Positions 153 through 59,548 of a stretch of 64,000 bases of DNA are shown one piece after another; position 1 is the first letter of the stretch, and every line of letters begins with the position of its first letter. The translations under genes and the position numbers were made by a program. The notes beneath the pieces are model-generated. The model did not search any database. It saw nothing but the letters and a program-made list of their open reading frames with translations, and was not told where the DNA came from. Source of the stretch: Rhizophagus irregularis (Eukaryota; Glomeromycota; Glomeromycetes; Glomerales; Glomeraceae); assembly GCF_026210795.1 (NCBI RefSeq), contig NC_089453.1, positions 2,730,501 through 2,794,500 of the forward strand, given 5' to 3'.

Positions 153-831
153 GATTACTCGATACATGTCGTACTGAGGAAAGTCAATTGTTGGCCAGTG
201 TTAACGAAATAGGTAATATCCATCAACATTACGATGATTATAATAAAGGTATTGTTCTCGATTCTTTGTCATTCATAAATGTTGGATACCATGGAGTAAA
301 TTTGAAATTCAAAACTCAGTCACGCTATAAACCGAAATACTTTTAAGAGCTAAATTTCTATCGTGATAAACATAACGAAGTTTTTAATCACCAACTAATG
401 AACAAAATGATTAAATAATAATGCACAATTTAATTTTTTTTTCATTAATTTAATAAATAACTCAAGCTTCCGATAAAAATAATGATGAAACCTTGACAGA
501 AAAAAGTCCGCCGAGCGAAAGAACTGCTGGATCGTCTACTGAAAGTGAAAGTTCGGCGGGGGAGACAAAATCACGCCCATGTAATTGGAGCGAAGGTGCG
601 ACCAAATGCTTCTCGTCCTGTTTGAAAAAACGAAGTAAATCACTAAAGAAACATGGTGGTATTAAATGGACTGAAGTCTCTGATGAGTTAAATAGTTACG
701 GTTTTACATTTTCACCCCAAAAGTGTTCTAATAAGTGGAAAAATATGAAACAAAATAAGAAGTACAAATTGCAGGTTAATGAAATTCTTGGTACAAAAAA
801 GAAAAGTAAAATTAAAAAAGAAGCAAATTAA
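153..831 (+). CDS. Myb/SANT-like DNA-binding protein, 5' end outside window
   Basis: Probable small nuclear DNA-binding protein. The C-terminal exon, 467-831, reads through an acidic and serine-rich stretch into a Myb/SANT-like domain. The domain has a tryptophan in helix 1 (CNWSEG), one in helix 2 (GGIKWTEV) and the helix-3 signature QKCSNKWKNMKQ, followed by a lysine-rich tail that could be a nuclear signal. The reading frame is open upstream to an acceptor AG at 465-466, which needs one base from the previous exon. An upstream exon probably starts after the AG at 151-152. Two donors fit the phase: GT at 213 (GTAATA, stronger) or at 249. The start codon is not visible and probably lies before the window. 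The nearest relative here is the 14202 gene, which shares the same domain order and a conserved I-x-EIL motif after the Myb domain. The domain call is firm; the 5' structure is uncertain. Confidence 0.75.
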
Positions 832-1580
832 TATATTAATCCAGTAGTTCAAAGAAAGCTTAATACCTTAATATTTTACTTCGTTTTTGTTATTATATTA
901 TTATATTTATTACTCAGATGTGTTGTTCTGTGATTTGGATTCGTCATATTAATCTCTTAATATACACGATCATGACCTATCCAAAAGTTTACGAAGTCCG
1001 ATAGAGTTTAATATAGGATTGAACATGGAATTTATAAAACTCAGAAATAAAATTTTTATTTATGAAATATTGAGCGTATTTATATATTCATTTAATATTC
1101 TCGTAGATTCGTACATGCCATTCTTAATAAAAAAAAACGAGCATTGAAATAAGCCAAATTTAGTTAAAATTTCTTTCACATTGAGCGAAATACAAAAATA
1201 GATTAATTGTGCCACTTAATACAGTGAATTTTTAATTTTTGAAAGACGATGAAAATCCATGTCCAAATTGAATGACCATTTTTAATGCTATACAGAATAT
1301 GTGTAACTTTTGTGAATAAATTACGCATTAATATTATCATCATTATATTTATACCATAAAAAGTAAATGTCGTAACGTTTAACTTATACTGTATATCTTT
1401 TTTTTAAAAAAAAAAATATTTTTGTATGATGTATGTGCAGGTAAAATTTTTAAATAAAAAATTTTTTTATTAATAACTTCATATGTTTATATGCCTTCAC
1501 TCACATTTTAAACAAATCATTATATAAATTTATAAATTTATTATTTAAGCAACTAATTATGGTACGGTAAGCCTTACATA
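832..1580. other. Intergenic, no gene seen
   Basis: AT-rich sequence following the Myb/SANT gene. I see no convincing ORF, splice pattern or RNA gene. Confidence 0.5.
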
Positions 1581-1953
1581 CAGTGCTGGCAAAAAGTAAT
1601 CGGAAAATATTTTTTAATTAGTATTTTACTGATAAAAAAAATATAATAGAGTTAAAAAATGATATGTTTTATACTATGAGAAATAGTTTTCTCTTAATGC
1701 ATAGTAAGTGGTTTCTTGTGTTAAATTTGCCTAATCGAAATATCAACTTTTTTTACATCATTTTTTTTTGAAATAAAAATTTAATTGAATTAAAATATCA
1801 TAAAATTTTCATTAAATATACTTGATAATTTAAGAATATTTAAATTTGGTTGGATATTTATGGCATATTGCCTTTCAAATTTATTTAATTTTTTTAATAA
1901 ATTTTTTAACATCTTTAGATAAAAATATTTTCCGATTACTTTTGTCAGCACTG
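1581..1953. mobile_element. Tc1/mariner-type MITE with TA target site
   Basis: A 373-bp non-coding element bounded by near-perfect terminal inverted repeats. The left end reads CAGTGCTGGCAAAAAGTAAT and the right end, reversed, CAGTGCTGACAAAAGTAATC; both continue CGGAAAATATTTTT. A TA dinucleotide flanks each side (1579-1580 and 1954-1955), as expected for a Tc1/mariner target duplication. The interior has no ORF, so it would depend on a transposase encoded elsewhere. Confidence 0.85.
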
Positions 1954-2134
1954 TAACTCTATATAGGACCTAAAGCTATCACGGCTTTAGCTCAAATCCA
2001 ACACTTCGTTTAACATAACCTCCTTCCCTCTTTATAACTTATGCTATTTGTCTCTTGTGTAATGATAAGAACTAATCAGCAAAAATTAAATAAAAATATT
2101 TTAACTATTATTTTGTTGTCCGGAGCGTAGCGAG

Positions 2135-2338
2135 TAGGGCTTCGATCCGGATTGATCCGTTAATTAGCATCACCACATTTTTCTATTATTTTTGTCAAAC
2201 TATAATTTTTGTCAGATTTATTCTTCTATAAATTTATTAATTTTGGCCAAACTAATAGCTCCAACTCAAATAAACCGATGCCAACCCGTTGTAAACCGCG
2301 GATTGATCCGTTAAAAACCCATCCGGATCGAAGCACTA
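2135..2338. mobile_element. hAT-type MITE with 8-bp target duplication
   Basis: A 204-bp non-coding element. The ends TAGGGCTTCGATCCGGATTG and, reversed, TAGTGCTTCGATCCGGATGG are inverted repeats. The flanking 8-mers GTAGCGAG at 2127-2134 and 2339-2346 are identical, which is the hAT-superfamily target-site signature. Confidence 0.88.
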
Positions 2339-2346
2339 GTAGCGAG

Positions 2347-4199
2347 AAATATTATATTATTTATTAATTACTATGAAATAATAATGATTGCTTACATTTA
2401 ACAGAAGTTTGAGATAAACAGCAGTAATTAGAGAATATGATCAAACTTGAAAGCTTTTTATCAATTATAAACTCAATTATGATTTGCAATTGACTTTTCT
2501 GAATCAAATCTCGTAAATAAATTGTATATTATATTTAGGAATTTAACAAAGTTTCATAAACCTTCTAGTCAAATTTTCAGCGGATTGTTTTCAACGAATT
2601 TGACGAATAGTAAATCAGGAATTTTTGAGGAAAAACCTTCTTTTAAAATGGATTTAATTTTACTTGTAGCTTCTAAATTTGAATTGTCTTTTTTTTTAAG
2701 AAAAGATATTTAAAAAGAAAATTCGCACTCGTAACTCGTGTTAATGATCTGCCACTGCCAGCAATCATGTTGCGCTTGTTAACTTTCTGCTGGCATTATG
2801 GCATTAGATGTGGCGTTTTGGCATTAAAGTATTTGACAAATAATATGTGACAAATAAGATTTCACAAACCGAAAAATCAAGTATACTTAGCAAAAATGGA
2901 GAGTGAGAGGTGTGACGCCAAGTGACAAATATTTTACTATAACCACGTGAGTGCAAATTTTGTTCGTGAAGATTGATTCGTTGTCGACATTGTATACATG
3001 GCCGGCACTATGTAGTGTGGTTTCGTAAATTGTTATTTAAAATATGGTAATAGCTTCGAACCTCCACATGAAAATTCACTAGATATACGATCGATTACTC
3101 AGAATAAGGTAAAAATTACATCGTTAGATTCGGAGCACTGATCCGAAGTACAGCGGTATGGTTTTTATTTTAATCTCTACCGAGTTTTACCGAGTTATTT
3201 GTAATATTTTTGGTTAATGTAAATTCTTTTCCTTCATTAACTATTTTAAAAACCTAATTTACATACTTCTAGCAAGAAACAAAATGCCGAATGTCCCGTA
3301 ACTTATTAAAACAGCTGTAAATTCGATAACTAAAGTTACATAAGTTACATAATATTTAAATGGTTGTAAAATTTGCTATGGAAATCTGTGAAATGTTGTT
3401 TATTATATTGGACCATCATGAATTTACCTTTTACCGAATCGCCCGCCAGAAGATAAATTTCTCTTTTTTAAAAAGCGGCGATTGTCAAGTTACATGCGAA
3501 ATTAGGGATAATATAAATACAGAAATAGAATTTTAATGTACCAATGTTCATAAATTTTTTACCGTGCAATAAGGAAATTTTTTACGATCATGTGATACAT
3601 TGGTATAATGATGCTAATTTTTGATATGTCACTTAGTGTTCCGAAAGGGTCGAGTCGGGTCGGGTTGAGAATGTACTTGAACTTGACCCGAGTATAAAAA
3701 CCAAACTCGATAAATATTCGGGTTAACAATTATGTAATTCGATTCCTGACCCGATTCGATATAGTTTAACTCCGGTCAGATAAATTTTTCAGATCTTCAA
3801 AACGAATTTGTTCGCACAATTTTTACAAGATTTTAATAAAATTCCATATTTTTATTGATAAAGTATAAAATTCTAAAATACTAATTCTCATTAGATCATT
3901 CTTTTCATATCCTACGCCCACCACATACACGCACGGATTGTATTAGTTTTGAGATTGTAATTAAATCAGCGCTACCAGAAAAGATCCGCTCTACTGGAAC
4001 ACTTGTAGCTAAATTAAAATCATTTTATTAGCTAGTAATTAGTAATATTAAAAATTGTAAATTGTTTAATTTTTTTACCTGTAATTGCGATATAATCCCT
4101 TACCATTATTGCTAGGTGCGATACCCTACTTCATTTAACTAATATGTTTATAATTAAATTAGTAAAACTAACCAATTATTATTAAATAGTTACCTTCCA
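2347..4199. other. Intergenic with transposon-end scraps
   Basis: No gene is supported. Positions about 2905-2965 resemble the right end of the small element at 6655-6785 (shared GGTGTGAYGCC, AATATTTTA and CACGTGRG words), so this is probably a solo remnant. Positions about 3640-3785 are rich in GGGTCGGGTT-type words and their complements. That is typical of hAT terminal or subterminal sequence, and may be one end of the neighbouring dead hAT element. Confidence 0.45.
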
Positions 4200-9888: not shown

Positions 9889-10440
9889 TTAAAATTCATC
9901 AGTTAAGTCTGCGTCACTGTGTGTCACTGTGTCATTATATAATTGATAATTTTTTTGCTGCAGTAAGACCTCATGCCCTGATGAATTTTGTATATCTGGT
10001 ATATCTGTTATGTAATCATAGCCAGGTCCCATAGTATCTTCTCGAATGTCATTAATGCCATTATAAAAATTGTAATTTTGCTGAGAATTCTGAATAATAT
10101 GCCTTTGAATTGAATTTTGTATATTATAGTGATGTGGAAACTGGTGATTAGGAATGTGAGATAAATTAATATTATTATTCAAGAGTTGCGTGATTTCAAA
10201 CTCATCTATCTCGGTATACGTAACATGAAAGAAACGCCGTTCGTTTGGCATAGGCAAATAACATTCATATGTCTCAGATTTGGGAGCCGCAGGGTTGATA
10301 AAGTTATTTTGCATTCCTACGCTTGAAATTTGTCGAATGTTAGGTTCATCGTTTTGATAAATAGCGAAGTCATTTTTGGTTGAATAATTCTCCATAGTAT
10401 AATTATTTGGAATAATATTTGGCATAATATTTGAACTCAT
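9889..10440 (-). CDS. Hypothetical protein, FTC/VTC-domain family, no Myb domain
   Basis: Uninterrupted 183-aa frame starting at an ATG at 10440. I do not recognise it in any named family. Residues about 55-95 include ERRFFHVTYTEIDEFEITQL followed by LNNN. This matches the pattern Y/F-x-F/V-T-C/Y-x-x-I...LLN in the 12730 and 14202 genes (YYVTCKYI...SLLNKE and LYRFTCRNL...QFLNKS). The N-terminus (MSSN) resembles the 14202 gene's (MNSN). The rest is Asn/Gln/His/Tyr-rich and probably disordered. It is the shortest and most diverged of the three. No signal peptide or membrane segment is seen. The upstream region carries a 14-bp word shared with the 13822-14201 promoter. It could be a decaying paralogue; function is unknown. 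Confidence 0.65.
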   Translation of the reverse strand: MSSNIMPNIIPNNYTMENYSTKNDFAIYQNDEPNIRQISSVGMQNNFINPAAPKSETYECYLPMPNERRFFHVTYTEIDEFEITQLLNNNINLSHIPNHQFPHHYNIQNSIQRHIIQNSQQNYNFYNGINDIREDTMGPGYDYITDIPDIQNSSGHEVLLQQKNYQLYNDTVTHSDADLTDEF

Positions 10441-11647: not shown

Positions 11648-11649
11648 TA

Positions 11650-12729: not shown

Positions 12730-13821
12730 TTAATCTGGAACAGCTTGTGTTATAGTTAAATCATTCCCAATATTTCCATCAAACGCATTATCAAAATCCA
12801 GTTTCGTTTCAGGAATGTGTTGTGATGGAAAATCGGATAGCTCAACTTGCTGATGAGTATATACATTTTGGCGATAATTGTGATCATTGCGATCATTGCG
12901 TGGTAAGTCATTATCGATATAATTTTGATTAGTATCTGCCATTGGAACTACTGATGTCACATAATTTTCAATATTTTCTTTACTCTCAAGAATATGATAT
13001 TGTGGGAAATTGGCGAGATCAACTTGTTGCTGTGAGTTATGAGTATAGTCAACATCTTGGTGATCATCATCGGGAATTTGAAAACTTTCAACTCCATTTT
13101 GGTGGTGCGAGCTATTGAAATTGGTTTGATCATTAGTTATTGAGTCTGTTTGTGTTGTCATTGCAATATTGTCATGGAATGAATTTATATTTCCATTATA
13201 ATCTGGTCTCGTATCTCTTTCGAGAATTTGTTGTGGGATACTATTATTGAAATGTGAGTCAATGACATGAGTGTAACCTCCAACCGCATTTACTCTTTGG
13301 TTGGCAAAATAATTATCATTAAACGATAAGTTATTATCAAAATTAGTTTGAACGGTTGTTCGTGTTGTCGGTATATTATTAACATGAAAATTTATATCAT
13401 CTTTCCTTTCAGGAATATTATGCTCTATTAGGTGTGAAGGAAGAATTTGTTTCAAGTCTTGCTCTAAATTGAACTTTTGACTCAAAAATAATGATTCTTT
13501 TCGATTCAAATTAATTGCGCCATGATCCATTCTACATAATTCTTTATTCAATAAACTTATAATCAAAGAATGTGGAATATATTTGCATGTAACGTAATAT
13601 TTTGCAACTGAATTGCTGAAAAAAAATCCATGATCATAAACATGGTTATCTAAGAACGGTTCTTGTAAAATATTTTTGCAAGTTACAAGATAAAAACAAT
13701 CATCTTCAGGTGTGTAATGAAAAAATGTTTGTTTATTCGTTTGCTGAATTAATGTGTTACTTTGTGTAACAGGTCGAATTGAAGCGGCAGGATCAATTGT
13801 CACAGCACCCATAGCATCCAT
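12730..13821 (-). CDS. Hypothetical Asn/Gln-rich protein with paired VTC domain and degenerate repeats
   Basis: Intact 363-aa frame from an ATG at 13821, with no visible intron. Residues about 33-100 hold two similar halves, CFYLVTCKNI and AKYYVTCKYIPHSLIISLLNK, which align with the N-terminal half of the 14202 protein. I know no named family for this. The remaining 260 residues are hydrophilic and Asn/Asp/Gln/His-rich. They contain about four loose repeats around F-P-x-x-H-I-x-E (LPSHLIEHNIPE, SIPQQILERD, FPQYHILESK, FPSQHIPETK). There is no Myb domain, signal peptide or membrane segment. It is transcribed divergently from the 14202 gene across 380 bp, and the two N-termini are paralogous. 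It may be a partner or a Myb-less relative of that regulator; this is inference. Confidence 0.75.
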   Translation of the reverse strand: MDAMGAVTIDPAASIRPVTQSNTLIQQTNKQTFFHYTPEDDCFYLVTCKNILQEPFLDNHVYDHGFFFSNSVAKYYVTCKYIPHSLIISLLNKELCRMDHGAINLNRKESLFLSQKFNLEQDLKQILPSHLIEHNIPERKDDINFHVNNIPTTRTTVQTNFDNNLSFNDNYFANQRVNAVGGYTHVIDSHFNNSIPQQILERDTRPDYNGNINSFHDNIAMTTQTDSITNDQTNFNSSHHQNGVESFQIPDDDHQDVDYTHNSQQQVDLANFPQYHILESKENIENYVTSVVPMADTNQNYIDNDLPRNDRNDHNYRQNVYTHQQVELSDFPSQHIPETKLDFDNAFDGNIGNDLTITQAVPD

Positions 13822-14201: not shown

Positions 14202-15263
14202 ATGAATTCAAATCAACAAATTCCAAGAAACTTAAGCATTTTATCCAATTCTACTCCCCAATATGACTTTGAATTTTGCGACCAACAGGCTACTATCATT
14301 TCTTATCCGTTTAATTATTCATATGATCAAACTGCCGAATACTCATTTTTTTATTCGTTATCCAATGAAATTTATCACATTAAATGTGAAGAAATTAATA
14401 ATAATCACAACAACTTAAACAATAATTCTTTTCAGTATGATAACGTTTATCATTTTGATTATGTACAATCTGATACCAAGAGATTGTATCGCTTTACATG
14501 TAGAAATCTTTCGTCTACATTTATTTTCCAGTTTTTAAATAAATCTACTTATGGAATCGAATTCACTCAAGATAAACAACTTCCCATGAAAAATATGAAA
14601 GATCAAAAAATTCTTGAAAGTAGCTTAAAAAGAGATTTGACTTGTTACTTGGCACTAGACCAAGATTGCAAGAAAAATTATTATTTAGATTTGATGTTTG
14701 TAGAAGATTATCAAAATTATTGTAAATGTACGCTTAAGAATTTTTTATCATTATTGTCTTGAATTTATTTTTGCAATTTTTTAAATTGAATGATTAAAAG
14801 CGAATTTAATGTTTTATTATCAATTATAGTAGGATTAAGCAAATCTTCTAACGTATATGAAAATACAAAAAGTTCAAAGAAAAAATCATGCAGGTGCACG
14901 TGGGATGAAAATTCCGTGAAATTATTACTTTCCTTTCTAGTAAAACGCAAGAGGCAGCACGGTGGTAAGAAAATTAAAACAAAACTTTGGGATGATGCCG
15001 TTACTATGCTATCTGAGAAAGGCTACAAATATACTGCTAAACAGTGTTCTATTAAGTGGAAAAATATTAAACAAAATTATAATGATGACAATAATCAAAA
15101 TGACAATAATCCAATTGAAATTCGGTATAAGTCGAAAATTGAAGAAATTCTTAATGGAGAAACTATGCTAAACTTAGTTGATTCGGATAAACTTGCTGGT
15201 AAGCGAAAGATATTGGATGAAGATAGTTCATCAAATAAAAAAATTAAATTTACTCAAAGTTAA
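14202..15263 (+). CDS. Two-domain regulator: paired FTC domain plus Myb/SANT-like domain
   Basis: Likely 317-aa nuclear protein made from two exons, 14202-14721 and 14830-15263. The donor GTAAAT and the acceptor TTATAG match in phase (phase 1), so the two open frames join without loss. Residues about 40-115 form the FTC/VTC domain (IYHIKCEEIN, then LYRFTCRNLSSTFIFQFLNK) shared with the 12730 gene. Residues about 195-260 form a Myb/SANT-like domain with three tryptophans (CTWDEN, KLWDDA, CSIKWKNIKQNY). An I-EEIL motif follows, then a basic C-terminus (GKRKILDE...KKIKF) that looks like a bipartite nuclear signal. It is divergent from its paralogue at 12730-13821. Known Myb/SANT proteins bind DNA and some come from Harbinger transposons; the target here is unknown. 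Intron retention would truncate the protein at 14762. Confidence 0.83.
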
Positions 15264-37331: not shown

Positions 37332-38974
37332 TTAATAGTGATTTAATCGTAAATTATTTTTGTGCCTCAATGCACATTGTGGTGGAGAATAATTATATTC
37401 ACGTTCTGATAGTATGAATGAAACACATTCCCACAAACCGGTCTTAATGTTGCCGTGATTTGTTTTTAACTTATTTATATATTCATCATATTCCCCCACG
37501 ATCGAATTAAAGGCATTAGAAGTTTCCTCATCCCAATTGCACCTAATCCCTATAGATTAAATATATTTATTGTGAGCGACTCGTTGATGATTTATTTCGA
37601 TAATAATGGATACAGTACTCACCCCCATGATGATGATAGTTAGACTTCTTGTAAGTTGGATGCTTAATTATACCACTAATATCGGCAAACAATTTGGGTC
37701 CTACATCGTTATTCATTAAACATCGATCAACAATTTCGGGAGTAACTTTGTATGAGAAAAAAGTAACGAAGGGAAGAAAAAATATTATTAATATTATTAT
37801 TAATTATTTTTTTTATAAAATGCTGAAAGAACTGTAACTATACTTAGAATCTGATCACAGAAGAATGATCATACAACTTTTTAAAAACAAATAATGAATT
37901 AAACCAGGATATTAACCTTTATGACCATCAACTACTTTTTTAACATAAAAATTTAGTATCTTTTGAATTATTATTTGTTTTCGGTTATCTAGTAGTTTAT
38001 GCAGATGCTGAACTTTATGAAGTTGAAGCTCCCGGGTCCGTCTTAGCTGAATTCCAGTCTCATCTAAAAAAAAAAAAGGAAAGATAAAATATCAAACTTT
38101 AGAATGTTATTCATCATATTTTATTTATCGCAAGTGGATCGCGTCAACAAAATGAAAAACGGCGACATAACTCTTTCTAAAATAACATAAATGAAGTGAG
38201 ATATTAGAAATCGGCATTACCTGGACTTTGTTGAACCAAACTTAGATGAATTTGAATTTGCTGAATAAGTTGTTGACTTAACAAGATTGTACTTTTAAGC
38301 TGACGAATTTGATGATCGAAACTACTTCGCTCAATGGTACAAAAATGTTGAAATTGAAGTTGCAGATCATTTATCCGAATTTCAATTTCATCAACTCCGT
38401 CTAAAATAAAAAGAAAAAAGACAAAATATCACATTTTATTTATCACGTTTCAATTTATAAAGGGTTGCGTCGTCAGTGATTAAGGGGATGGCCAGAAATG
38501 ACGTAATTTAAATTTTAGGATTTTTGACCCCCCTCCCTATGTCATCATTCATTTTAGGAAATGTAAGATTAAAACATAATTCTGGCTAGAATTATATTAA
38601 CTACAAGTGTCTAAAAATAGAAGGTGTGTAACATCATCGTCTTAACCCCCTCCCCCTTAGGAAATGACGTCATTTCTGGCCATCCCCTAACTAGAAAACC
38701 AACATAAATTAAAAGAGATATTTACCTTCATGGGCACTAAAGTAACTTCGAAGAATGAGTTCCTGATTTTGCTGAATATTTGGAAAAATTTCATCTACAG
38801 CTTCATCTAATATAGAGGGGAAAAAAACAATATATACAGTATTTCATTTGTGAAAATAACGATATAACTTTTTAAAAGCAACGTATATTCACCTTGTGAA
38901 CCAGCATAATTTTGAATAGCTTGCGTATAATATTGTATGGTCCCTTGGACCCATTCATCAGCATTGTCCACCAT
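37332..38974 (-). CDS. Six-exon Myb/SANT-like protein with coiled-coil-like N-terminus
   Basis: Not visible as one ORF. Six minus-strand exons join into a 276-aa protein with no stop: 38974-38893, 38806-38726, 38400-38221, 38063-37917, 37745-37623 and 37549-37332. All five introns have GT...AG ends (one GTGAGT) and all are phase 1. Residues about 56-160 are Gln/Leu/Ile-rich with helical character (QLKSTILLSQQLIQQIQIHL) and could be a coiled coil. Residues 150-200 match the 41936 protein (KILNFYVKKV, then VTPEIVDRCL). Residues about 206-270 are a Myb/SANT-like domain with two of the usual tryptophans (CNWDEE, GLWECV) and SPPQCALRHKN, where helix 3 has histidine instead of tryptophan. Intron 2 holds a MITE. 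It is divergent from 41936-42807. Function is inferred as DNA binding. Confidence 0.85.
38484..38687. mobile_element. PIF/Harbinger-like MITE inside intron 2 of the Myb/SANT gene
   Basis: A 204-bp element with ends GGGGATGGCCAGAAATGACG and, reversed, the same 20 bases. TAA flanks it on both sides (38481-38483, 38688-38690), fitting the TWA target of PIF/Harbinger elements. It lies wholly within the 325-bp intron 38725-38401, so it accounts for that intron's length and leaves the exons intact. Confidence 0.82.
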
Positions 38975-41935: not shown

Positions 41936-42807
41936 ATGGATTTCAATTATTCTTATTCTACATTTTTCGAAAACAAAATAGAAGAAAATAAAATAACTCG
42001 CGATACTTTCGAAAATCAAGGTGACACCCAAAGGGAAGAACTTCAACACAGGACTTCTGGCACAACTTACGTTTCTTCGGAGATTCAAAGAAACATCCAA
42101 AGTGATGACTTAGAAGAAGAAATCCAACAATGCAAAATTTCGCTTGATAGTATAATTCAAAAAGGTCCTATTGATACAGTAATTCGATCTATAGTAAATT
42201 TCTATGCTGAAAAGTTACGAAATAATAAAGGTTAATTTTTTTTTTTACCTGTATTGCACTCAGAAACTTGTATCACTAATATTTTCCATAAAAACATAAG
42301 TGTCTTAGTCACTAAAATTACTTTTCTCATACAAAAATAGTCACCTACAATATTGTTGAGAAATGCTTAACGGAATATCGCAAAAATGCAAATACATATA
42401 AACCAAAAGAACCTGAATTATTCATTGAAATTAGTAAGTCAATTGGACATAAAAAATATTGTAAGACTTACTATAAAAATAATGATGATGGTAGGTAATC
42501 TTTTTATCATGTTTAACACTTTAATACTTTAACGTCATAAATCTTCACTCACGATATATAATTATATACGTATTTATATACTATGAAAGGAAAAAAATGT
42601 GACTGGGATAAAAAAGCTAACGATAATTTCAAATTAATCATTGGAAAATATGAAAGTTATACAAATAAATTAAAATCAAACCGTGGTAATATTAAAACTG
42701 GATTTTGGGAATATGTATGTTTTATTTTGTCAAAGCATGGGCATAATAATTATACTCCGACACAATGCGCAGTGAAGTACAAGAATTGTAAAGCTAAAAA
42801 AAAGTAA
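41936..42807 (+). CDS. Three-exon Myb/SANT-like protein, paralogue of the 38974 gene
   Basis: Exons 41936-42230, 42341-42490 and 42590-42807 join through two phase-1 GT...AG introns into a 220-aa protein without stops. Residues 1-75 are acidic and polar. Residues about 70-148 include IRSIVNFYAEKLRNNK and VTYNIVEKCLTEYR, aligning with KILNFYVKKV and VTPEIVDRCL of the minus-strand gene. Residues about 150-215 are a Myb/SANT-like domain: CDWDKKANDNF, NRGNIKTGFWEYV and TPTQCAVKYKN, where helix 3 has tyrosine in the usual third tryptophan position. It ends in a short Lys-rich tail. The first exon ends at 42230, and reading on would stop at 42235. It is divergent from 37332-38974, with a shared upstream element. 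A DNA-binding regulator is the likely role; targets are unknown. Confidence 0.85.
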
Positions 42808-48250: not shown

Positions 48251-48269
48251 AATATTTACTAATAAATGT

Positions 48270-48905: not shown

Positions 48906-49209
48906 TTTTTCTAGTACGGTAAATATTCACGCAGAGGTTAAGAAACTGGAGAATTGTTTCTATCTTATAAACTTTTTTTTTTTAATGATTTAGAATAAAT
49001 ATAAATAATAAATAAATAAATAAATAGTGCTATAGTTAATAAATTGTGAGATATGACATTTTAAAATATGAACGGATCGGTTCTTATGATAAAAAAAAAA
49101 GTAGAAAGATGCATGATTAAAAATATTTTTTAAAAAAAACCCTCCAACTAATTCACGTGCGATAACTTCGAATTCTGCGGATTTACTCCACGAAAACATT
49201 AAATTCATG
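48906..49209. other. Intergenic
   Basis: AT-rich; nothing recognised. Confidence 0.5.
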
Positions 49210-50570
49210 TACTGTATACAGGTCAATATAGATTAAAATACATTAAATAATATAAACACCACTCCCTAGTGTTGATAAAACACTTTAGAATCGTCTTCGC
49301 TTATCTATCTTCTTCCTATAGAAATTAAGAGCCGCGAAGTCAAGCATGAGATATGAAAGACGGAACTAATTAATGTGAAATTATTTAAATGATTAATTAC
49401 GAAGGAAAATAAAAAGTGGAATTAAAAAGAATAAAAGTATGATTGTAAAAAAGAAAATATTCTATGAGCGTGAAAATATTGTACGCACGATAGTATTCTT
49501 AATGACCGAATTATAATGGATAGGGCTTTCGGCCAATATTGTTACCAATCTAATAACTACTTAAATAAAATATTATCAATATCGCAGGTGAAACTTTCTG
49601 AAAACTTTTTTTTTAATTCCTGTAAAACGACTAATTTAAAGTCAGGTTTTTTTGTTAAAATATATACAGTATATGTATATATATATATATATATTAAATA
49701 ATAGTATTGCATATAATAACAAATAAAAACATAAAGTATAAACCAATCAGCATATCAACTCCAACGGTTTGGTAGTCCCATCGTTCCATTCTACTAGCCT
49801 CAAGTCGGACTAAACTGGACCGTTAGCAACATCATAAATTTTTATCAAGATAGAGAGGAATAAAAAAAGAAAGAAATAACGAAATTAGAGAAATAAAATA
49901 AAAGTAATAAAAACTTAATCACGTGTTTAACTATTATTAAATTCATAATAAAATAACCGAGACATTTCAAAATAAAAATGATTATTAAATAAAATATTTC
50001 ATCATTTCGTTAAATTGGTATCCTTAATTTAATACTTAGTACTTTACACAAAAAAGGAGTTAGTATATTAAGAATTTTGATGCATCATTACTCAGAAAGA
50101 AAAGTAGAAAAAACAAACTTCTATAAACATAAGCAAATAATGAATACTACGTACCAATTAAGGATTGTGAAATTGGGAAGATCAAAGTAATAAAAGGACT
50201 AAAAAGTTCGTTATTATTTTAGGTATTTTTAATTAAAAGTTCCTCTATATAATATATTAAATCAAAAATCAAACAATAATTAAATATAAGAGAATGTGTA
50301 ATATATAAATTTGATACAAAAAAAATATTTATTATAGTTAAAATACTATTAAATTACGTAGGATCATATTTTCATAGACCGAAATTCTTATTATAAAGCA
50401 TAACAATGATAATACATGATTGTTCATAATTGACATAATAAAGTGGAGTAAAAAATATGGCATGGCATAAGCGAAAAATTTTAGAGTCAGCTATTCACTA
50501 CTATATAGTGGTAAATAATTATTTATCACTAGCCCTTTGTGTTTAACTAACTTAATCCATTATACCATAA

Positions 50571-50621
50571 TCCTAACCTAACCCTAACGGCCTAACCCTA
50601 ACCCTAACCCTAATACTAACC
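50571..50621 (-). repeat. Interstitial telomere-like repeat, left arm
   Basis: About 50 bp of CCCTAA units, some imperfect. The G-rich strand is the minus strand, so it points outward from the centre of the inverted duplication. TTAGGG is a common fungal telomere unit. Confidence 0.8.
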
Positions 50622-51041
50622 TCTAAATTTTACTATAGAATCTATATACATCACCATATAGTTACAAATAGGTATTTCCAAAATTTTATAGGAAAATTTT
50701 AAAATTTAAATAAAGCTTATAAAATGGTTTAAAAATAGCATAAAATGAAATTCATAGAAACTTAGATAAAGCTTATTTATGATGTTATAATTAATGATTG
50801 GTGTAAAACATTCTTTGTGTACAACAGGTGATCGTCCTTTTATCAATGAATGTTACCAATTCGGTATGTTTTTGAATGAAAAATCCCCAATTTTGGTTTA
50901 ATAGAACGTAACCAAAGAAGTTCTTTCAAAAAAATAAATAAATAAATAAAATGAGGAAAAATATGTATATATAAACCTAAACCCCACTTCTTTTTGACAA
51001 TATTCTTTTCAATTATCGAAGAATTTTGAAAAATGGTTTTT

Positions 51042-52263
51042 TTATTTGTGCCAATTACTACCAAGAATACTGTCGACTTCTGATTTATATTGATATTCAC
51101 TATTATTCTAGATTAGATAATAAATTAATCAAAAATCGCAATTAATTTTTTTTTAAAAAAAGAAAAAAAAATATTACCTTATAATCTTGTTTTATGTTTT
51201 TCCATTTACACGCACATTGTGAAGGTGAAAATTTCTTATTGGTAAGTTGTAATAACGTATTTGATATATCTTCCCAGAGTGGTTTCTTTACATTTCCACG
51301 ATTTGAAGTCAGTCGCCTTACCTTTACTTTACGTTGTTCCAAAAGGGATAAAAACAATTTTACAATTTCTGGTTCCCACTTTTCTTTTATAGTGTAAATT
51401 AATATATACATTAATGTGGGTGAGTGGAACTCCGATCATAATAAAAAGATACCCACCTTTTTTATAGTCGTTTGCGCGAAAAGTCGATGATCCTCTAATT
51501 TCGGCAGGCCGACTAACACTCCCATGAGTCCCATCGGTAGCTTCTAAAATACACAAAGCGTTAAGTAATACTCATTATTAATTACTAAGATATTACTATA
51601 TTTCTTTTACGAATCTCAGCGGTTTAACAAAGCCAGAATGATTCTCAATCAATTGTTAAGTATTTTGATACCTAGCTGGACATTAGAGTACAAAGTAATA
51701 TTTCTTCGACGTCCTTCTGCAGAACTTGGTTGGTTTTGTGGGTGAGTTTTAGTGGGATCAGGAGGAAAGGAAACATTCACGCTATGTTCTTCAACTCCAC
51801 CCAAATTAACGTTGTTTTGATCTTGAACTTGTGAAGTTGTTACAACAGCAGTATTGAGACTAGTAAGAAGAGAGTCTAAATCAAAGTTAAGAAGAGATTT
51901 GGCATCCAAATCAAGAAGGGAGCCGAAATCCAAATTAACGTTGTTTTGATCTTGAACTTGTGGAGTGGTTACAATAGGAACATTGGGATCAGGAAGAGAG
52001 CTGAAATCAAAATCAGTGAAATCCAAATTAACGTCGTTTTGATCTTGGACTTGTGAAGTTGTTACAAGATCAGTATTGAGACTAGTAAGAAGAGAGTATA
52101 AATCAAAATCAGAGAAATCCAAATTAACGTCGTTTTGATCTTGGACTTGTGAAGTGGTTACAAAAGGAGCATTGGGACCGGAAGAGATAATATTCATGTC
52201 AAGTGGGTGAATTCCTTCTTCCTCTGCTCTGATACCTTGACTTTGGCCTTGTTGATCATTCAT
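51042..52263 (-). CDS. Myb/SANT-like protein, left-arm copy
   Basis: Exons 52263-51672, 51543-51457, 51383-51178 and 51107-51042 give a 316-aa protein without stops (introns phase 1, 1 and 0). Residues 1-165 are acidic and polar, with four copies of VTT(S/P)QVQDQN(D/N)VNL separated by Asp/Phe/Leu-rich spacers. This is a disordered, possibly activation-type region. The 87-bp exon encodes THGSVSRPAEIRGSSTFRAN. Residues about 227-295 are the Myb/SANT-like domain (KKPLWEDI; KFSPSQCACKWKNIKQ). The last exon ends YKSEVDSILGS, matching the I-EEIL motif of other family members. It lacks the counterpart of exon 2 of the right-arm gene. The end of its first exon lies in a segment inverted relative to that gene, yet a usable donor (GTATCA) keeps phase. 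Domain and later exons are firm; the first donor is inferred. Confidence 0.8.
51624..51722. other. Micro-inversion relative to the right arm
   Basis: Plus-strand sequence here (TCAATCAATTGTTAAGTATT, then TACAAAGTAATATTTCTTC and CTGCAG) matches the plus strand of 58876-58972 (TCAACCAATTGTAGAGTATT, TACAAAGTAATATTTCTTC, CTGCAG). All surrounding arm sequence matches the opposite strand. About 95 bp has therefore flipped in one arm. Confidence 0.75.
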
Positions 52264-52357
52264 TTTTTAAGAAATGAAACAATGTCGTTATGAAAAAAAA
52301 AGAGAAAAGGAAAGTGAAGAAAGAAAATTTTTCACATATAAATACATTATCGAGCGC

Positions 52358-52476
52358 TAATCTAATCCACGCGCTGGGATACGATTGCTTTACTGTTGCA
52401 ACTGTGAATTGGATACGATTGACTGCAACTATGGCACAAATCTGGATTGGATACGATTGACTGTGATAACTGGGAA
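52358..52476 (-). promoter_or_regulatory. Repeated GGATACGATTG words upstream of the left-arm gene
   Basis: Three copies of GGATACGATTG (near 52378, 52411 and 52449), two of them extended as ATTGGATACGATTGACTG, plus TAATCTAATCC lie 95-215 bp before the start codon. Related words lie at the same position before the right-arm gene. A cis-regulatory role is inferred. Confidence 0.45.
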
Positions 52477-53402
52477 ATTAAAGTTTGTTTTCGGATAACT
52501 TCTTAAAGTTTCATTTAATTTCAGATAAAAAAAACACTTAAACCACCCTCAGAGACCCTATATTCTTCATTTAGTTATAAAATAATTTTAAAACATTTTG
52601 TTTTTTTTATTTAATTTCATAATTTATATTGTAGAACTAATAAAAACAGAGAGAGCATGAAAAGGATCGTCTTCAATTTTAAAGTTGCAATCACAAATAT
52701 ATTTAAATAGTTATTAACACCCTACAATTAATCTAGTGTGATTATGACTTTAACAGTTAACTATCGTTTATCAGATTTAATCTAAATAGTATTAATGATA
52801 TTAACATAATTACAGGTTACAAAATTTGTATATGGCTTAGAAAGTGAATATTCGTATTCTAAAAATTTGGGATTTTATTTTTAGAAATCATGGGAAGGAA
52901 TGAATAAAATTAACGACAGTATTAATTCCTATCTTATTGTTATATGTAAGTATGATATAATGTGATTGGATTTCAAATTTTAAAATTATGCGAGAGATTT
53001 ATTATGACGAATTAAATTTTTGTGAAATGAAAAAATTGGGCGTATTTTTTATGGATTAGATTTCCACATTTTAATTTAGTCTAACCATAATTCCCAATTT
53101 GGACGCAAAAACTCTATGTTGTTAGAAAAGGAAATCACTTACCATTTTTATTCGAAAATAAAAAAAAAATGAAGATCGTTTCCCATTTTATAATGAGATA
53201 CAATCATCAAAAATTTCATTTGAAAAAAAGTAAGCAAATAGTTAATTCTGTTAATTCTGATGCTGAACAATATTAGATAAAGAAATCGTAAGTATGAATA
53301 TATAGATTTAAAATAGTCTAAGATTTAAATAAGGGTTTTAAAGACATGTAGTATTATTTTTCATATGAATTAAATTATGTATAGAAAACATTCATGTTTC
53401 AG

Positions 53403-56022
53403 GTTTGATCACTTTTTATAAATTTTGATAGTGCAAACCTTAACTTCTTCCAATAATATACTGTACACGAAATTTTTTTTCGCTCTACAAGTTAATATAC
53501 TGTATATAGATGTTCTTTTTAAAAGCAAATTAATATTTTTGAAAATGCGTAGGTAAACGCGAACCTGTAATAACAGGCGTTATCAAAAAATTTAATAAAT
53601 TATTAAGAATTATAAAGTTTCCGTATGGACAATAAGTTTTTTAACTATTTCTCAACAATGTTCTAACCAAATTTAACAATAATACACTTTATATTAAAGC
53701 TTTTTTACAGGTAACAGAAAATATTAATTTAAGAGTCAAAAAGTTTTATAAAAGCCTTAAATATGATAGGATGTTTAAGGAAACAAAAGAATTTAATAAA
53801 ATTAGTGTCCTTTGAAGTGCATTAAAAAAAAGTTAATTTATTTAACACAAATTCGAATCGATCCTAGGGATGCAACTTGGAGTTGGCTCTAGAGCCGAAC
53901 GTCATCTCCAGTTTGAGCTGAACCGAGCAGCTTGAGCGGAGTGAGCAGAGACTGCAGAGTCGACTCTGCGAGTCTGTTAAACATCTTTAATTATTATGGT
54001 TTGATTCTATTCCCCCCAGCATCATCATAAATTTATGGTCACGTGATCATACGAAAAAAATAATTTATCCCGGACCTCGAATTTTGATTGGGCAAAAATT
54101 GTTATATTTTGTAACATTTTTTTTTTTTTGTTAGTAACACGCATTTCTTTATTATATTTATAATAAGAATTTACATATAAAATTTATACAGAAATACAGA
54201 GTTAAAAAATACATATTTCTAAATGCGTTAACAAGAGCAACACTATTATCTATCTAAACTATTATTTAAAGTTCGATCTATAAATTAAAATACTATTTTA
54301 TCTGTTATTTTTTTCCTGTTTTTAATATTTTCGTTATGTTTTTGTTTTTTCTTTTGCTGATTATTTTGTAATAAATACCGTGCTGAATTTTACGTACAAA
54401 ATACAATTAAATTTCCAACTAAAAAATGCATAATTTTTTATAATGTATTTATTTCATATTACACTGCTGTTAAAAAAATTTTTATTAACCAGATCATTTG
54501 CGCCAAAAATACTTAATCAATACAATTGCAGTTTCTGTATAGTGCATAAAACAAATTTCCGCGCGATCAGTTTCTAATATTTTGTCTAAAAACAAATATG
54601 TAATGATAAATTGAGAAAATTTTATAATAATGAAATAAATAATGATTAAATATTATTTTATACCTTTATTTTGTAATATTTCAAAAATCAAGCAACTTTT
54701 TTGGTAGAGGATTCTGATCAAGTACATCCAAATTACTTGAAGTAATTCATTTTGTATCTCCATCAACTCTTATCTCATACTCAAATCCATCAATTTCTCT
54801 TTTAAGTTGGTTTAAATTCTTCTGCTTCAAAAAAGTGTTGTTTTTGTTTACAATTAACTGATATATAAAATTATAAATATCATTATAAATCCATCATGTT
54901 TATATTCTTACTTAAAAATTGAACGAATTGTTGGTACATTACAACCTGCTTGATGATAAAATATGATTCGTACTTTAATTTCTTGGGGAATTATTCTTTC
55001 ATTACTAAGAAATATTTTGTATTCAGGAGCAACCATTTCATGATTATGTTACCAATTTCATGGCTAAAGTCCACTATCATTATCAAGTGAAGCTCTGATA
55101 AAAATGGACAATTACATCTTTAGGATTTACGATCTCTTGAATTGACTTTATCCTCCTTACTTGCGCGTGAACATAAGCATAAGATTGTTCTTCTAATATA
55201 TATTTTTCTTTGTCACGACCTACTTTGCTCAACCGCATCTAAAAATTGCAATATGACGCGTAATTTTGAACTCTTGCTACAAATTCTTCATGGATTTTAA
55301 GCGTTGGTTGAACTTCATGTATACCTATCTAAATATATCTGACGGAAATTTAATCAGGAGATTGTTGTGACGCAACATTTTTTTTTGATAATTTAATAAA
55401 AATGTTGTGAAACGTTTTTATTAATTAATTTATTTAAAAAAAAACGTTGCGCAATGTTTTCTTTTTGATAATTTACTCAGGTTCGGCAGTATTCATAGTT
55501 ACTAAAAAAAATATATTAAAGAACGAGTTTTATACAATTAATTTTACTACTTATATTCATATTTTCTTATGTCTAAATAGTTGTAGTTATAATACTTACA
55601 TTTTAATACGTAGTGGCTAAGTGAAAATTGGCCAATCAAATTTTGATGTGCTGAAGACAGTCATGTGATATTACGTTCTGCAATTGCGTGAGCGTTTTAC
55701 TAAAAAAATTTACTAATTGAATGTGTTTCTTTAGGAGAATTGAATGTATCTTTAAATTGTATATTATTATAACACACCACTGGTACTCAACACCACACCA
55801 TAGTATGTGATTTCACAAAACTATAGCATAAACAACTGAAGTTGTACTAATTAAAATTACTTGGCACCCTTGAAAATGGTCAGAAAAAATCAAAAAACTT
55901 ATAAAATATAAGTTAAGTATATGCTGCAGCATTTAAGTACTTTGATGTGAAATATAATTATTAAATTAATAGCATCAGCTCAGCTAGACTATTAGTAATA
56001 TAGAATATATCTTTACTGAGTC
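53403..56022. other. Spacer of the inverted duplication
   Basis: No intact gene. A hAT-like end (TAGGGATGCAACTTGGAGTT) starts at 53865, without a visible partner. A minus-strand coding scrap is listed separately. The rest is AT-rich. Confidence 0.5.
54660..55320 (-). pseudogene. Transposase N-terminal scrap, possibly MULE-type
   Basis: Minus-strand frames give LKREIDGFEYEIRVDG (near 54790), then APEYKIFLSNERIIPQEIK with AGCNVPTIRSIL (near 54910-55040) and EQSYAYVHAQVRRIK (near 55150). The run 'N-x-P-x-I-R-x-I-L' after a Cys/His-poor segment resembles the N-terminal region of MULE/FAR1-like transposases I recall from Glomeromycotina. Order and frames are scrambled by stops. Low-confidence family call. 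Confidence 0.4.
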
Positions 56023-56901
56023 CGGTCCGATGATCTCCAAGTCATATCAATTTTTATTTAGCACAGTCATGTGAATTTGAGTCCGGATCATCGGACCATG
56101 CAGTCGCTTAGAATAATTACTTGGGTCCGATTGATTGCTGTATAAGCTTGATCTAACACGATTTTTTTTTATTGCTATTTGCTTTATAATGAGAGTTACT
56201 AAAAAAAAAATATTTTTTTTTATTAATTTAATGAGATAATGGTTGTAGTATACATATTTTTTTTTTTTTTGCGACACTACAATACTAAAATATTCTTAAA
56301 ATCATACGACAAACACTAAATTTATTTGTTACAAAGAAAATTATAGACAATAAAACATGAAATATGAAAATGACTATTTATTTATATTCAATGTCTTTTC
56401 GGAGATACTGCATGGTAAAAAAAAGATCATCCGATAATGCAACAATCTCAGCCTCACTTCTTTTAACAAACAATCATTTTATTTTTTTTCCAAAGATCAT
56501 ACATACTCTTTCGGACAATAGTTTTTTTATCTATAAGTCGGCGTATCGCTACTTCTGAATCGAAATTTGAAATTTAATAACGCTGGTTAGTTTTGGTCAA
56601 TATTAATATTTTTTTCCATAAATATGCACTCAAATTATTATTACGCTTGTTTTAAAGTTACAATAAATTAATATGCAAGCATTCCATTAACAATACTACT
56701 TACATGAGCTATTTTTAAATTTTTGTTATGAGTTTATTGTATAAAGAATATTTAAATTTACAACTAATTAAATATAAGAAATGTAGATCGGTCACGTCCG
56801 ATGGTAGCGAAGTCCGATCAAAGTTTAATTCGGTCTGCATCAAAATTCACATGACTATGCTAAAAATTAACATTACCGGACTCAGAAAGATCATCGGACC
56901 G
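56023..56901. mobile_element. DNA element with CGGTCCGATGATC ends
   Basis: Left end CGGTCCGATGATCT and, reversed, right end CGGTCCGATGATCTTTC. Both continue to AATTTTTA...GCA(C/T)AGTCATGTGAATTTT and a further CCGA word, so the inverted repeats extend about 100 bp with gaps. About 880 bp, with no transposase frame. No target duplication seen; superfamily open. Confidence 0.65.
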
Positions 56902-58112
56902 AAACCATAACCTCTGAAACATGAATATTTTCTATACATAATTTAATTCAGAGAAGACCCATATGAAAAAATAATAATACATGTCTTTAAAACCCTTATT
57001 TAAATCTCAGACTATTTTAAATCTATATACTTAACAATTTCTTTATCTAGTATTGTTCAGCATCAGAACTTACTACTTGCTTACTTTTTACTAAGCTCTT
57101 TTCAAATGAAATACGGATAAATTTTTTACAAAAAGAGAAAAAGATATGTCATGGAAAGTAATTTTTTTATTTGAATTTTTTTTTATAAAAATTGAGACGA
57201 ACTTTTTTTCTTACAAAAAGAAAAAAGATAAATCAAAATAGGAAACGATTTTCATTTTTTTTTATTTTTGAATTTTTCGAGTATTTATTACGAAAGATAA
57301 ATTAAAAATGGGTAAGTGATTTCCTCTTCTCTAACAAAAAAAATAATTAAAGATTAGTTTCACAATACATACGTCCAAATTAGGAATTATGGTTAGATTA
57401 AATTAAAATGTGGAAATCTAATCCATAAAAATACGCCCAATTTTCATTTAAAGATATGATTGTCAAAAAAATAATAAAAATCTGTGATAATTTACGTGTT
57501 TTTTAAATTTTTGAAATCCAATCACATGATGTCATACTTGCATCTATAACAATAAGATAGGAATTGATCAGGCAATAGTTCCAATTAACTGTCGTTAATT
57601 TTATTCCTTCATGATTTCTAAAAATAAAATCAAATCCCAAATTTTTAGAATACAAATGTTCAGATTTATTGCAATAAAAGCTTCCGCAAAGGGAAATATG
57701 ACAAATAAATATGTGCCCTTGAACTGCATCAATTTTACTTTCTAAGTCATATACAGATTTTGTAACCTGTAATTATATTAATATCATTAATACAATTTAG
57801 TCTAAATCTGATAGACGATAGTTAACTGTTAAAGTCACAATAACGCTAGATTAATTGTAGGGTGTTAATAACTATTTAAATATATTTGTGATTGCAACTT
57901 TAAAATTGAAGACGATCCTTTTCATGCTCTCTCTGTTTTTATTAGTTTCGCATTCATTCTACAATATAAATTATGAATTTAGATAAAAAAAAAACAAAAT
58001 GTTCTAGAATTATTTTCATAACTAAATGAGAAATAGAGTCCCTGAGGGTGGTTTAAGTTTTTTTTATCTGAAACTTTAAGAAGTTATCCAAAACTTAAAA
58101 CTTTAATTTGTG

Positions 58113-58217
58113 TCACAGTTGCCACAGCTAATCGTATCCAATCCAAATTTGCAGTTAATCATATCCAATTCACAGTTGCCACAGTCAATCGTATTCCAGC
58201 GCGTGGATTAGATTAGT
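58113..58217 (+). promoter_or_regulatory. Repeated ATCGTATCCAAT words upstream of the right-arm gene
   Basis: Three loose copies of CACAGTTGCCACAG...AATC(G/A)TATCCAAT(C/T)CA and a GGATTAGATTAG lie 90-190 bp before the ATG. The same core, ATTGGATACGATT on the other strand, repeats upstream of the left-arm gene. Confidence 0.45.
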
Positions 58218-58305
58218 GCTTGACAACTGAATGTATTTATACGTTCTTTCTTCACCTTCCTTTTCCCATTTTTTTCGTAACAACATTGTTTCATTTCTTA
58301 AAAAA

Positions 58306-59548
58306 ATGAATGGTCAACAAAGCCAAAGTCGGGATAACAGAGCAGGAGAAAAAGGAATTCACCCACCTAACAAAAATATAACCACTACACTAGCCCAAGG
58401 TCTTCTTGATTTGGATCCCAAATCTCTTCTTAATATTGATTTAGACTCCATTTTTAATCCCAATGTAACCACTCTACAAGCCCAAGGTAAAAACGACGAT
58501 TTGGATTTCGAATCTTATCCTATTAACCCTCTTGGAGTTGAAGAAACGTATAACTCTCCTTCTGGTTCCAATGCTATTTTTGAAGCTCAATTAAACGGCT
58601 CCGAAGTTGGATACCGGATCCCAAGAGGTAAGTTTCGAAAAGAATATTTGAAACTTTCTTTAACGTTTTTTTCTTTTTTTTTTAAGGAAATTGGCTCCCA
58701 AGTTGGACACAAATCCAAAGTGGAAACACCCTTTATTCGAGTGAAACTGAATATGGCACGAATCTCGCCTTTCCTACTAAGTTCAATGCCCAATTAAACA
58801 ATCAAAACCGGAATGGCATGAATTTTTCCTCGCCTTATGGTCTCATTGAAGCTCAGCAAAGTCTGTCTAATCAACCTTTTCAACAACAAAGTCAAAATGA
58901 TGCTCAACCAATTGTAGAGTATTCTAGTACCTGGTTGGACGATAGTGTACAAAGTAATATTTCTTCCTGCAGATTCGCAAATAGAATATAGTAATATCTT
59001 TAGTTAGTAATTAATAATGAATATTACTTAACGCTTTGTGTATTTTAGAAGCTACTGATGGGACTCATGGGAGTGTTAGTCGGCCTGCCGAAATTAGAGG
59101 ATCATCGACTTTTCGCGCAAACGACTATAAAAAAGGTGGGTATCTTTTTATTATGATCGGAGTTCCACTCACCCATATTAATGTATATATTAATTTACAT
59201 TATAAAAGAAAAGTTTGAACCAGAAATTGCAAAATTGTTTTTATCCCTTTTGGAACAACGTAAAGTAAAGGTAAGGCGACTGACTTCAAATCGTGGAAAT
59301 GTAAAAAAACCACTCTGGGAAGATATATCAAATACGTTATTACAACTTACCAATAAGAAATTTTCACCTTCACAATGTGCGTGTAAATGGAAAAACATAA
59401 AACAAAATTATAAGGTAATATTTTTTTTTTTTTAAAAAAAAAAATTAATTGCGATTTTTGATTAATTTATTATCTAATCTAGAATAATAGTGAATATCAA
59501 TATAAATCAGAAGTCGATAGTATTCTCGGTAGTAATTGGCACAAATAA
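58306..59548 (+). CDS. Myb/SANT-like protein, right-arm copy
   Basis: Five exons, 58306-58627, 58687-58953, 59049-59135, 59209-59414 and 59483-59548, join into 315 aa without stops. Introns are 59, 95, 73 and 68 bp, the first three phase 1 and the last phase 0. I chose the ATG at 58306 because it matches the left-arm start (MN-QQ-QS). Residues 1-195 are Asn/Gln/Ser-rich and probably disordered, with one copy of the VTT-Q-Q motif that is repeated four times in the left copy. The 87-bp exon is protein-identical to the left copy (SVSRPAEIRGSSTFRAN). Residues about 228-294 are the Myb/SANT-like domain with KKPLWEDI and QCACKWKNIKQNY. The final exon ends SEVDSILGSNWHK. It is transcribed outward from the centre of the inverted repeat. 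DNA binding is inferred from the domain. Confidence 0.85.

What the first reader, a model, noticed from the sequence alone, without database searches (positions are those of the whole stretch)
153..59548. Six small Myb/SANT-like genes packed into 64 kb of otherwise dead DNA
Nearly every intact gene here ends in the same kind of Myb/SANT-like domain (153, 14202, 37332, 41936, 51042 and 58306). N-termini differ by subfamily, while the DNA-binding part and a trailing I-x-EIL/SIL motif persist. A local expansion of putative regulators in a transposon-rich region suggests rapid birth of DNA-binding proteins. They may derive from the Myb-like ORF of PIF/Harbinger elements, which are known to carry such a second protein. 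The origin and any function are inference.
Basis: partly seen in the sequence, partly recalled or inferred. Interest (0 to 1): 0.82.

Follow-up and report, generated by a model that had tools for sequence, protein, structure and literature searches.

The report
Fungal gene cluster from a transposon
Six small genes in this stretch of a fungal chromosome encode DNA-binding-type proteins that most likely began as the helper gene of a jumping element and were then copied locally and given new front ends, a kind of gene capture already described in animals and plants.

Summary
Six Myb/SANT domains lie at the stated places; four of six pass Pfam PF13837's cut-off. The genome matches the published Rhizophagus irregularis DAOM197198 assembly. 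The six belong to a local expansion: 15 related Mybs on contig C25, 13 within 280 kb. The guessed PIF/Harbinger origin is well supported: of 26 matches to one Harbinger Myb, 8 lie 1.1-1.8 kb from a DDE_Tnp_4 transposase, all convergent, while the 12 on C25 are over 558 kb from one. Harbinger and C25 Mybs group together against the genome's other Mybs sampled, and four of six window genes share the Harbinger YK-x-x-[VI]-x-x-IL tail. Among the 30 closest of 190 pairs, most older pairs have dN/dS 0.1-0.6, three 0.67-0.89, the youngest about 1 or more. Corrections: 51042 and 58306 are arms of one inverted duplication; 37332 has its tail out of frame; the rest is not all dead. Genes 153 and 14202 are predicted to be fused to an undescribed domain of a separate clustered family (113 places). 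Direction of transfer, expression and function are untested.

The parts
1..831 (+). gene '153' (3' part): exon from about 153 and Myb exon about 467-831; predicted 5' exons with the N-domain lie upstream at C25:2729731-2730501
   Evidence: PF13837 36.0 bits; upstream N-domain ORF L001:1231-1773; in-frame splice fits. Fusion is a prediction.
14202..14721 (+). gene 14202, predicted exon 1: undescribed N-domain
   Evidence: N-domain family match; no Pfam match
14722..14829 (+). gene 14202, predicted intron GTAAAT...ATTATAG
   Evidence: joins two ORFs in frame into a 318-codon model with stop; no transcript evidence
14830..15263 (+). gene 14202, predicted exon 2: Myb/SANT domain, IEEIL tail, basic C-terminus
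   Evidence: PF13837 47.2 bits; top-scoring PF13837 match of the genome search
37332..37803 (-). gene 37332: upstream exon within ORF 37567-37803 and Myb exon 37335-37556; VDEIL tail in another frame
   Evidence: PF13837 25.8 bits, below cut-off; tail frame
41936..42804 (+). gene 41936: exons by hand model, the Myb domain in 42562-42804
   Evidence: PF13837 17.7 bits, below cut-off; relative of 37332 and C25:2.7205 Mb
51042..52263 (-). gene 51042: N-terminal exon with internal repeats, Myb exon 51145-51435, SEVDSIL tail exon
   Evidence: PF13837 39.7 bits; tail; internal repeats
58306..59548 (+). gene 58306: inverted-duplicate copy of 51042, Myb exon 59157-59432, SEVDSIL tail exon from 59483
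   Evidence: PF13837 34.1 bits; tail
49209..53402 (.). arm 1 of an inverted segmental duplication
   Evidence: self-BLAST and alignment
56914..61329 (.). arm 2 of the same inverted duplication
12730..13821 (-). stand-alone N-domain ORF (363 aa), divergent from gene 14202
   Evidence: 80 matches genome-wide from 100 candidates

Best explanation
The six genes are members of a host gene cluster whose DNA-binding part comes from the Myb-like second gene of a PIF/Harbinger transposon. One or more such genes lost the transposase and the terminal repeats, stayed at one place on contig C25, and multiplied by local duplication, including one inverted duplication in the window. The N-terminal parts were exchanged repeatedly: for an unrelated domain of a neighbouring clustered family (predicted for genes 153 and 14202), for a different exon set (37332, 41936), or for stretches with short repeats (51042, 58306 and most of seven more on C25). 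The most likely mode of action is that the trihelix-like domain binds DNA in the nucleus and the variable N-terminus decides with what it interacts, so that the cluster works as a set of transcription or chromatin regulators. Shown here: domain identity, a lineage shared with Harbinger Mybs, no DDE_Tnp_4 match within 558 kb of the 15 C25 domains, no C2-type terminal repeat in the window, clustering, open frames for most, constraint on most older pairs measured. Inferred: direction from transposon to host, splicing, expression, DNA binding, regulatory role.
For: PF13837 matches for four of six and a profile match to the solved GT-1 trihelix domain, 2jmw E 2.6e-5 and 2ebi E 4.2e-5, over 37 profile positions. 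In 8 of 26 matches to the C2 Harbinger Myb a DDE_Tnp_4 match lies 1.1-1.8 kb away, all convergent; the 12 C25 matches are over 558 kb from one, and so are the other three C25 domains. The C2 and C3 elements carry inverted repeats about 3.0 and 3.15 kb apart; the C2 repeat (25 bases) has 0 matches in the window with up to 3 mismatches. C25, C29 and Harbinger (C2, C3 type) Mybs form one side of a branch against the other Mybs sampled, support 95/98 and 100/99. Tail: VKYKAEVEEIL (C2), IQYKEEIEAIL (C3), VRYKTEIEEIL (C29), IRYKSKIEEIL (14202), KYKLQVNEIL (153), YQYKSEVDSIL (51042, 58306); not found in four other Mybs examined, L022, L024, L026, L029. dN/dS: of the 30 closest of 190 pairs printed, 21 older pairs lie at 0.11-0.56; with window genes: 14202 against C2 0.21, and 37332 against 41936 pS 0.80 (saturated), pN 0.26. 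None of the 12 C25 matches has a stop inside.
Against: Two of six domains miss the Pfam cut-off and one gene has its tail out of frame. Young pairs show dN/dS of 1 or more: the two inverted arms 1.0 (5 changes), C25:2.895 against 2.911 Mb 1.5, the C29 triplet 2.5, 4.2 and one pair with no silent change; three older pairs lie at 0.67-0.89. This fits relaxed as well as positive selection; pairs are not independent, and most were between C25 genes outside the window. In one search five C25 matches carry one or two stop codons, probably because those matches run past exon ends, which was not checked case by case. The trees have 71-72 columns and give neither direction nor one origin. The seven repeat-type C25 Mybs show no convincing tail (one loose match), nor do the two at C25:2.718-2.7205 Mb, and one of three C29 domains lacks it. 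The intron one codon after the conserved Tyr/Phe is shared with Harbinger Mybs but also with 2 of 4 other Mybs. A more different Harbinger Myb (C13 type) fell on a very long branch and was left out. No transcript or population data were at hand.
Confidence: 0.64

Rival explanations
1. The genes are dead or dying leftovers of Harbinger insertions, kept open by chance, with no host function.
For: 37332 has its tail out of frame; two domains are below the Pfam cut-off; the youngest pairs have dN/dS about 1 or more.
Against: No DDE_Tnp_4 match within 558 kb of the 15 C25 domains, no C2-type terminal repeat in the window, no stop inside the 12 C25 matches, most older pairs constrained, and duplication of a whole gene segment in two arms, with no third full copy among the 40 of 205 candidates scored.
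Confidence: 0.18
2. The cluster is an old host trihelix family, and the Harbinger elements captured their Myb gene from it.
For: The tree gives no direction; the best tree does not make the cluster one clade, though holding it together is not rejected, p-AU 0.30. Not every fungal Harbinger lineage has a Myb gene (PMC12730594, passages), so gains and losses occur. Another Myb of this genome lies beside a tnp2-type transposase.
Against: PIF elements of plants and animals carry such a Myb gene as a rule (PMC9710019, section 3 read) and Nuwa-type Harbinger elements do too (PMC12730594), so the Myb was probably with Harbinger before this fungus. Outside C25 and the C29 triplet, the matches of the C2 query are beside a transposase, or the broken C6 place, or a C17 fragment.
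Confidence: 0.1
3. The N-domain and the Myb of genes 153 and 14202 belong to separate neighbouring genes, so no fusion exists.
For: In both cases a stop codon ends the N-domain ORF, and in 14202 the Myb ORF has its own ATG at 14790. The other N-domain genes read appear as ORFs without a Myb behind them. Gene 153 may also start at an ATG just before its second exon.
Against: In 14202 only 27 bases separate the stop from that ATG, and a 108-base intron with GT-AG ends joins both parts in frame. Gene 153 also allows an in-frame join at a phase-1 intron after the same part of the N-domain.
Confidence: 0.35

Closest known systems
PIF/Harbinger Myb-like protein (second gene of Harbinger elements; R. 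irregularis C2:5595964 copy)
   Same: PF13837-type domain; YK-x-x-[VI]-x-x-IL tail in four of six window genes; intron one codon after the conserved Tyr in 51042 and 58306
   Different: No transposase or C2-type terminal repeat near the window genes; the long charged C-terminal stretch of the C2 protein was not seen in them; N-termini differ
Domesticated Harbinger Myb genes: NAIF1, ALP2, HDP2, DPM7 (PMC9710019, section 3 read)
   Same: Host-retained Myb-like gene of a Harbinger lineage
   Different: Those are described with a domesticated transposase partner; here many Mybs in one cluster without one nearby, in a fungus, with differing N-termini
Plant GT-1 / trihelix DNA-binding domain (2jmw, 2ebi)
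   Same: Profile match E 2.6e-5
   Different: Only 37 profile positions align; nothing outside the domain was compared
Other PF13837 ORFs of the same genome, one type beside a tnp2-type transposase (L022)
   Same: PF13837 domain; two of four share the intron place
   Different: Other side of the tree; no such tail found in four examined

Membership tests
Pfam PF13837 Myb_DNA-bind_4 | score at or above 27 bits: genes 153, 14202, 51042, 58306 | tested here: met
   36.0, 47.2, 39.7, 34.1 bits
Pfam PF13837 Myb_DNA-bind_4 | score at or above 27 bits: genes 37332 and 41936 | tested here: not met
   25.8 and 17.7 bits; called relatives only through pairwise matches and tree
MADF (PF10545) | score at or above 22 bits | tested here: not met
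   best 17.3 bits
PIF/Harbinger transposon (window genes as mobile elements) | DDE_Tnp_4 transposase gene beside the Myb gene | tested here: not met
   none of 42 matches (49 of 49 candidates scored) lies in the window; nearest to any C25 domain over 558 kb
PIF/Harbinger transposon (window genes as mobile elements) | terminal inverted repeats | tested here: inconclusive
   C2-type repeat: 0 matches with up to 3 mismatches; repeats of other Harbinger types not searched in the window
PIF/Harbinger transposon (window genes as mobile elements) | 3-bp target-site duplication | not tested
   no element ends to test
Harbinger-derived host Myb gene | Myb of the Harbinger lineage | tested here: met
   direction not shown
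Harbinger-derived host Myb gene | purifying selection | tested here: inconclusive
   met for most older pairs, not for the youngest
Harbinger-derived host Myb gene | conserved place in related species | not testable with these tools
   no other fungal genome held
Harbinger-derived host Myb gene | expression | not testable with these tools
   no RNA data

The most novel reading that the evidence does not exclude
The N-domain family (113 places at E 0.001 or better, clustered on few chromosomes, dN/dS 0.05-0.42 in its 22 closest pairs, no good Pfam or PDB match) is a large fungus-specific system, and the C25 cluster is where it captured transposon-derived DNA-binding domains as output modules, making a fast-changing set of sensor-like regulators, perhaps for self/non-self or nuclear identity in a coenocytic symbiont.
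Probability: 0.1. Interest if true: 0.85.

Novelty: new variant of a known kind. Interest (0 to 1): 0.57.

Why it matters
Host capture of the Harbinger Myb gene is described in insects, vertebrates and plants (PMC9710019), where a transposase partner is emphasised. Here the Myb lineage seems to have multiplied alone, in one chromosomal cluster of a mycorrhizal fungus, with differing N-terminal parts, while Harbinger copies of the same lineage remain in the genome for comparison. That makes the steps from transposon gene to host gene family testable by binding assays. The neighbouring N-domain family is a separate, strongly constrained group for which the searches named in Tried and rejected showed no description.

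Tried and rejected
MADF membership: rejected, 17.3 bits at best against a cut-off of 22.

Window genes as part of a present-day Harbinger element: rejected. The inverted arm as a repeat family: no third full copy among 40 of 205 candidates scored, only short shared pieces. Link to the HMG-box set: 150 of 275 candidates scored; some lie near N-domain places on C16, but the two C16 stretches read showed no fused N-domain-HMG ORF.

A shared intron as proof of Harbinger origin: dropped, because 2 of 4 other Mybs have it too. One origin of the cluster: neither shown nor rejected, p-AU 0.30.

Rows dropped: loci L001, L002 (duplicates), L048, L050 (fragments) and identical sequences, 14 of the 23 'TE' rows, the C13-type Harbinger Myb, and the C19 Harbinger copy, whose pieces passed no threshold. 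The label 'TE' is mine: only 6 of 23 such rows, and 4 of 9, come from loci with flanks read; the rest are 700-base pieces without context.

Structure of the N-domain: not obtained. Literature: the listings (20 of 133 papers shown; 20 of 32; 20 of 765; 20 of 23; none; none) showed no title or abstract start about this cluster or domain; most subscription journals are not held. Papers: PMC9710019 section 3 and passages; PMC10234402, PMC11075540, PMC8647823 and PMC12730594 passages; all others as search listings.
Full report
WHAT IS THERE. The window is G000:C25:2730501-2794500 of a 146,748,485-base, 32-contig genome. Contig C13 is 5,085,394 bases long, exactly the scaffold N50 that PMC10234402 gives for its 32-scaffold Rhizophagus irregularis DAOM197198 assembly (passages); the published total is 24,516 bases larger. 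I take it to be that assembly. Six Myb/SANT domains are present; four of six pass Pfam PF13837, and my own profile finds six among window ORFs of 50 aa or more (five of the six were in its seed). Three of the 150 places scored genome-wide lie in the window, where 0.07-0.11 would be expected.

CORRECTIONS TO THE OBSERVATION. Genes 51042 and 58306 lie in the two arms of an inverted duplication of about 4.2 kb. Of 47 aligned 100-column blocks, the seven over the N-terminal coding exon are 43-79% identical; of the other 40, 37 are at 80% or more, with many gaps towards the outer end. An 82-base piece at the end of that exon matches in the opposite sense to the rest. No third full copy was among the 40 of 205 candidates scored. 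In 37332 the VDEIL tail is in a different frame from the Myb exon, and in 41936 there is only GGIL in a guessed exon. The window also holds an open ORF of another family at 12730-13821.

A CLUSTER ON C25. Searches with five Myb exons and with the C2 Harbinger Myb converge: 15 domains on C25, 13 between 2.638 and 2.917 Mb and two at 1.761 Mb (counted); three tandem domains at C29:767 kb; the Harbinger Mybs; and fragments on C19, C6 and C17. A further PF13837 match on C25 at 2.7006 Mb is of the other, common type. In the tree seven C25 genes group together, joined on a long branch by C25:2.718 Mb; most of the seven have short repeats before the Myb domain. 37332, 41936 and C25:2.7205 Mb group (97/93), as do 51042 and 58306; 153 and 14202 are not firmly placed.

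ORIGIN. DDE_Tnp_4 has 42 matches from 49 candidates, none in the window. The C2 Myb as query gives 26 matches. Eight lie 1.1-1.8 kb from a DDE_Tnp_4 match and all eight are convergent; the 12 on C25 are over 558 kb from one, and so are the three other C25 domains. Five further PF13837/DDE_Tnp_4 pairs, with more different Mybs where I read them, are convergent too. The C2 and C3 elements show inverted repeats about 3.0 and 3.15 kb apart; 3-bp target-site duplications are suggested by their flanks but were judged by eye. Other Mybs of the genome, one type beside a tnp2-type transposase, form the other side of the tree (95/98; 100/99); most of those rows are pieces whose context I did not read. 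The tail YK-x-x-[VI]-x-x-IL follows the domain in the three Harbinger copies examined, two of three C29 domains and four of six window genes; it was not found in the four other Mybs examined, nor convincingly in the other nine C25 domains outside the window. In 14202 and 153 the tail follows without an intron. The tree does not settle direction or number of origins. That PIF elements of plants and animals carry this gene as a rule (PMC9710019), and Nuwa-type Harbinger elements too, though not all fungal Harbinger lineages (PMC12730594, passages), favours transposon to host.

SELECTION. Nei-Gojobori estimates on 64-70 codons: of 190 pairs the 30 closest were printed. Among them 21 older pairs have dN/dS 0.11-0.56, three 0.67-0.89, one is saturated (37332 against 41936, pS 0.80, pN 0.26), and five young pairs are at 1.0, 1.5, 2.5, 4.2 or without silent change. 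The changes in the youngest pairs are few, pairs overlap, and only three of the 30 involve window genes. The pattern is constraint on old domains with looser or diversifying change after duplication; it does not separate the two.

THE SECOND FAMILY. The N-terminal exon of 14202, the exon upstream of 153 and the ORF 12730-13821 share a domain of about 105 residues found at 113 places by two queries (48 of 106 and 80 of 100 candidates), 36 on C19 and 16 on C25; places include weak matches and tandem copies. None of 20 members has a convincing Pfam match (best E 0.0064, nine scattered families) and the profile has no PDB match up to E 1. In 128 of 128 pairs with pS under 0.6, dN/dS is below 1. 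Three of four separate Myb sites outside Harbinger copies (C25 main, C19, C29; not C25:1.76 Mb; the broken C6 place and C17 fragment not counted) lie within 50 kb of an N-domain place, whose surroundings cover 3.2% of the genome, P 1e-4. This test was chosen after seeing the data, the C25 site counts partly through the two predicted fusions themselves, and three C25 genes at 2.895-2.917 Mb lie about 150 kb away. The fusion in 153 and 14202 is a splice prediction that keeps the frame.

HOW IT PROBABLY WORKS. The profile's relation to the GT-1 trihelix domain and the reported binding of a 9-bp motif by the zebrafish Harbinger Myb (PMC9710019) make DNA binding likely. The basic end of the 14202 protein resembles a bipartite nuclear signal (motif recalled, not tested). 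The rest of the proposed mode of action is inference.

Noticed in passing
C19 0.14-0.75 Mb, C25 2.54-3.2 Mb, C22, C17, C8, C6, C16 and others: A clustered family, 113 places at E 0.001 or better, with an undescribed domain (F-F-Y ... Y-H-[IV]-T-C, twice, then L-N-K), often with Asn-rich tails, under strong constraint.
   Followed up: partly
C29:767130-768109 (L015): Three tandem Myb exons, perhaps in one gene, whose differences are almost all amino-acid-changing.
   Followed up: partly
window 51626-51707 and 58885-58966: An 82-base piece at the end of the N-terminal coding exon is inverted between the two arms, yet both exons stay open.
   Followed up: partly
L017, L018, L020, L021 on C25: Myb genes with in-frame repeats of the type VCESPRQMSFSSESPT before the Myb domain.
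   Followed up: no
L022, L024, L026, L029 and copies: High-copy PF13837 ORFs in repeats; L022 and its copies lie beside a tnp2-type transposase, the others have no transposase assigned to the same unit here.
   Followed up: partly
whole genome: 150 HMG-box places scored of 275 candidates, several in clusters.
   Followed up: no
window 9889-10440(-): A 183-aa ORF that looks to the eye a little like the N-domain; it did not pass the profile threshold.
   Followed up: no
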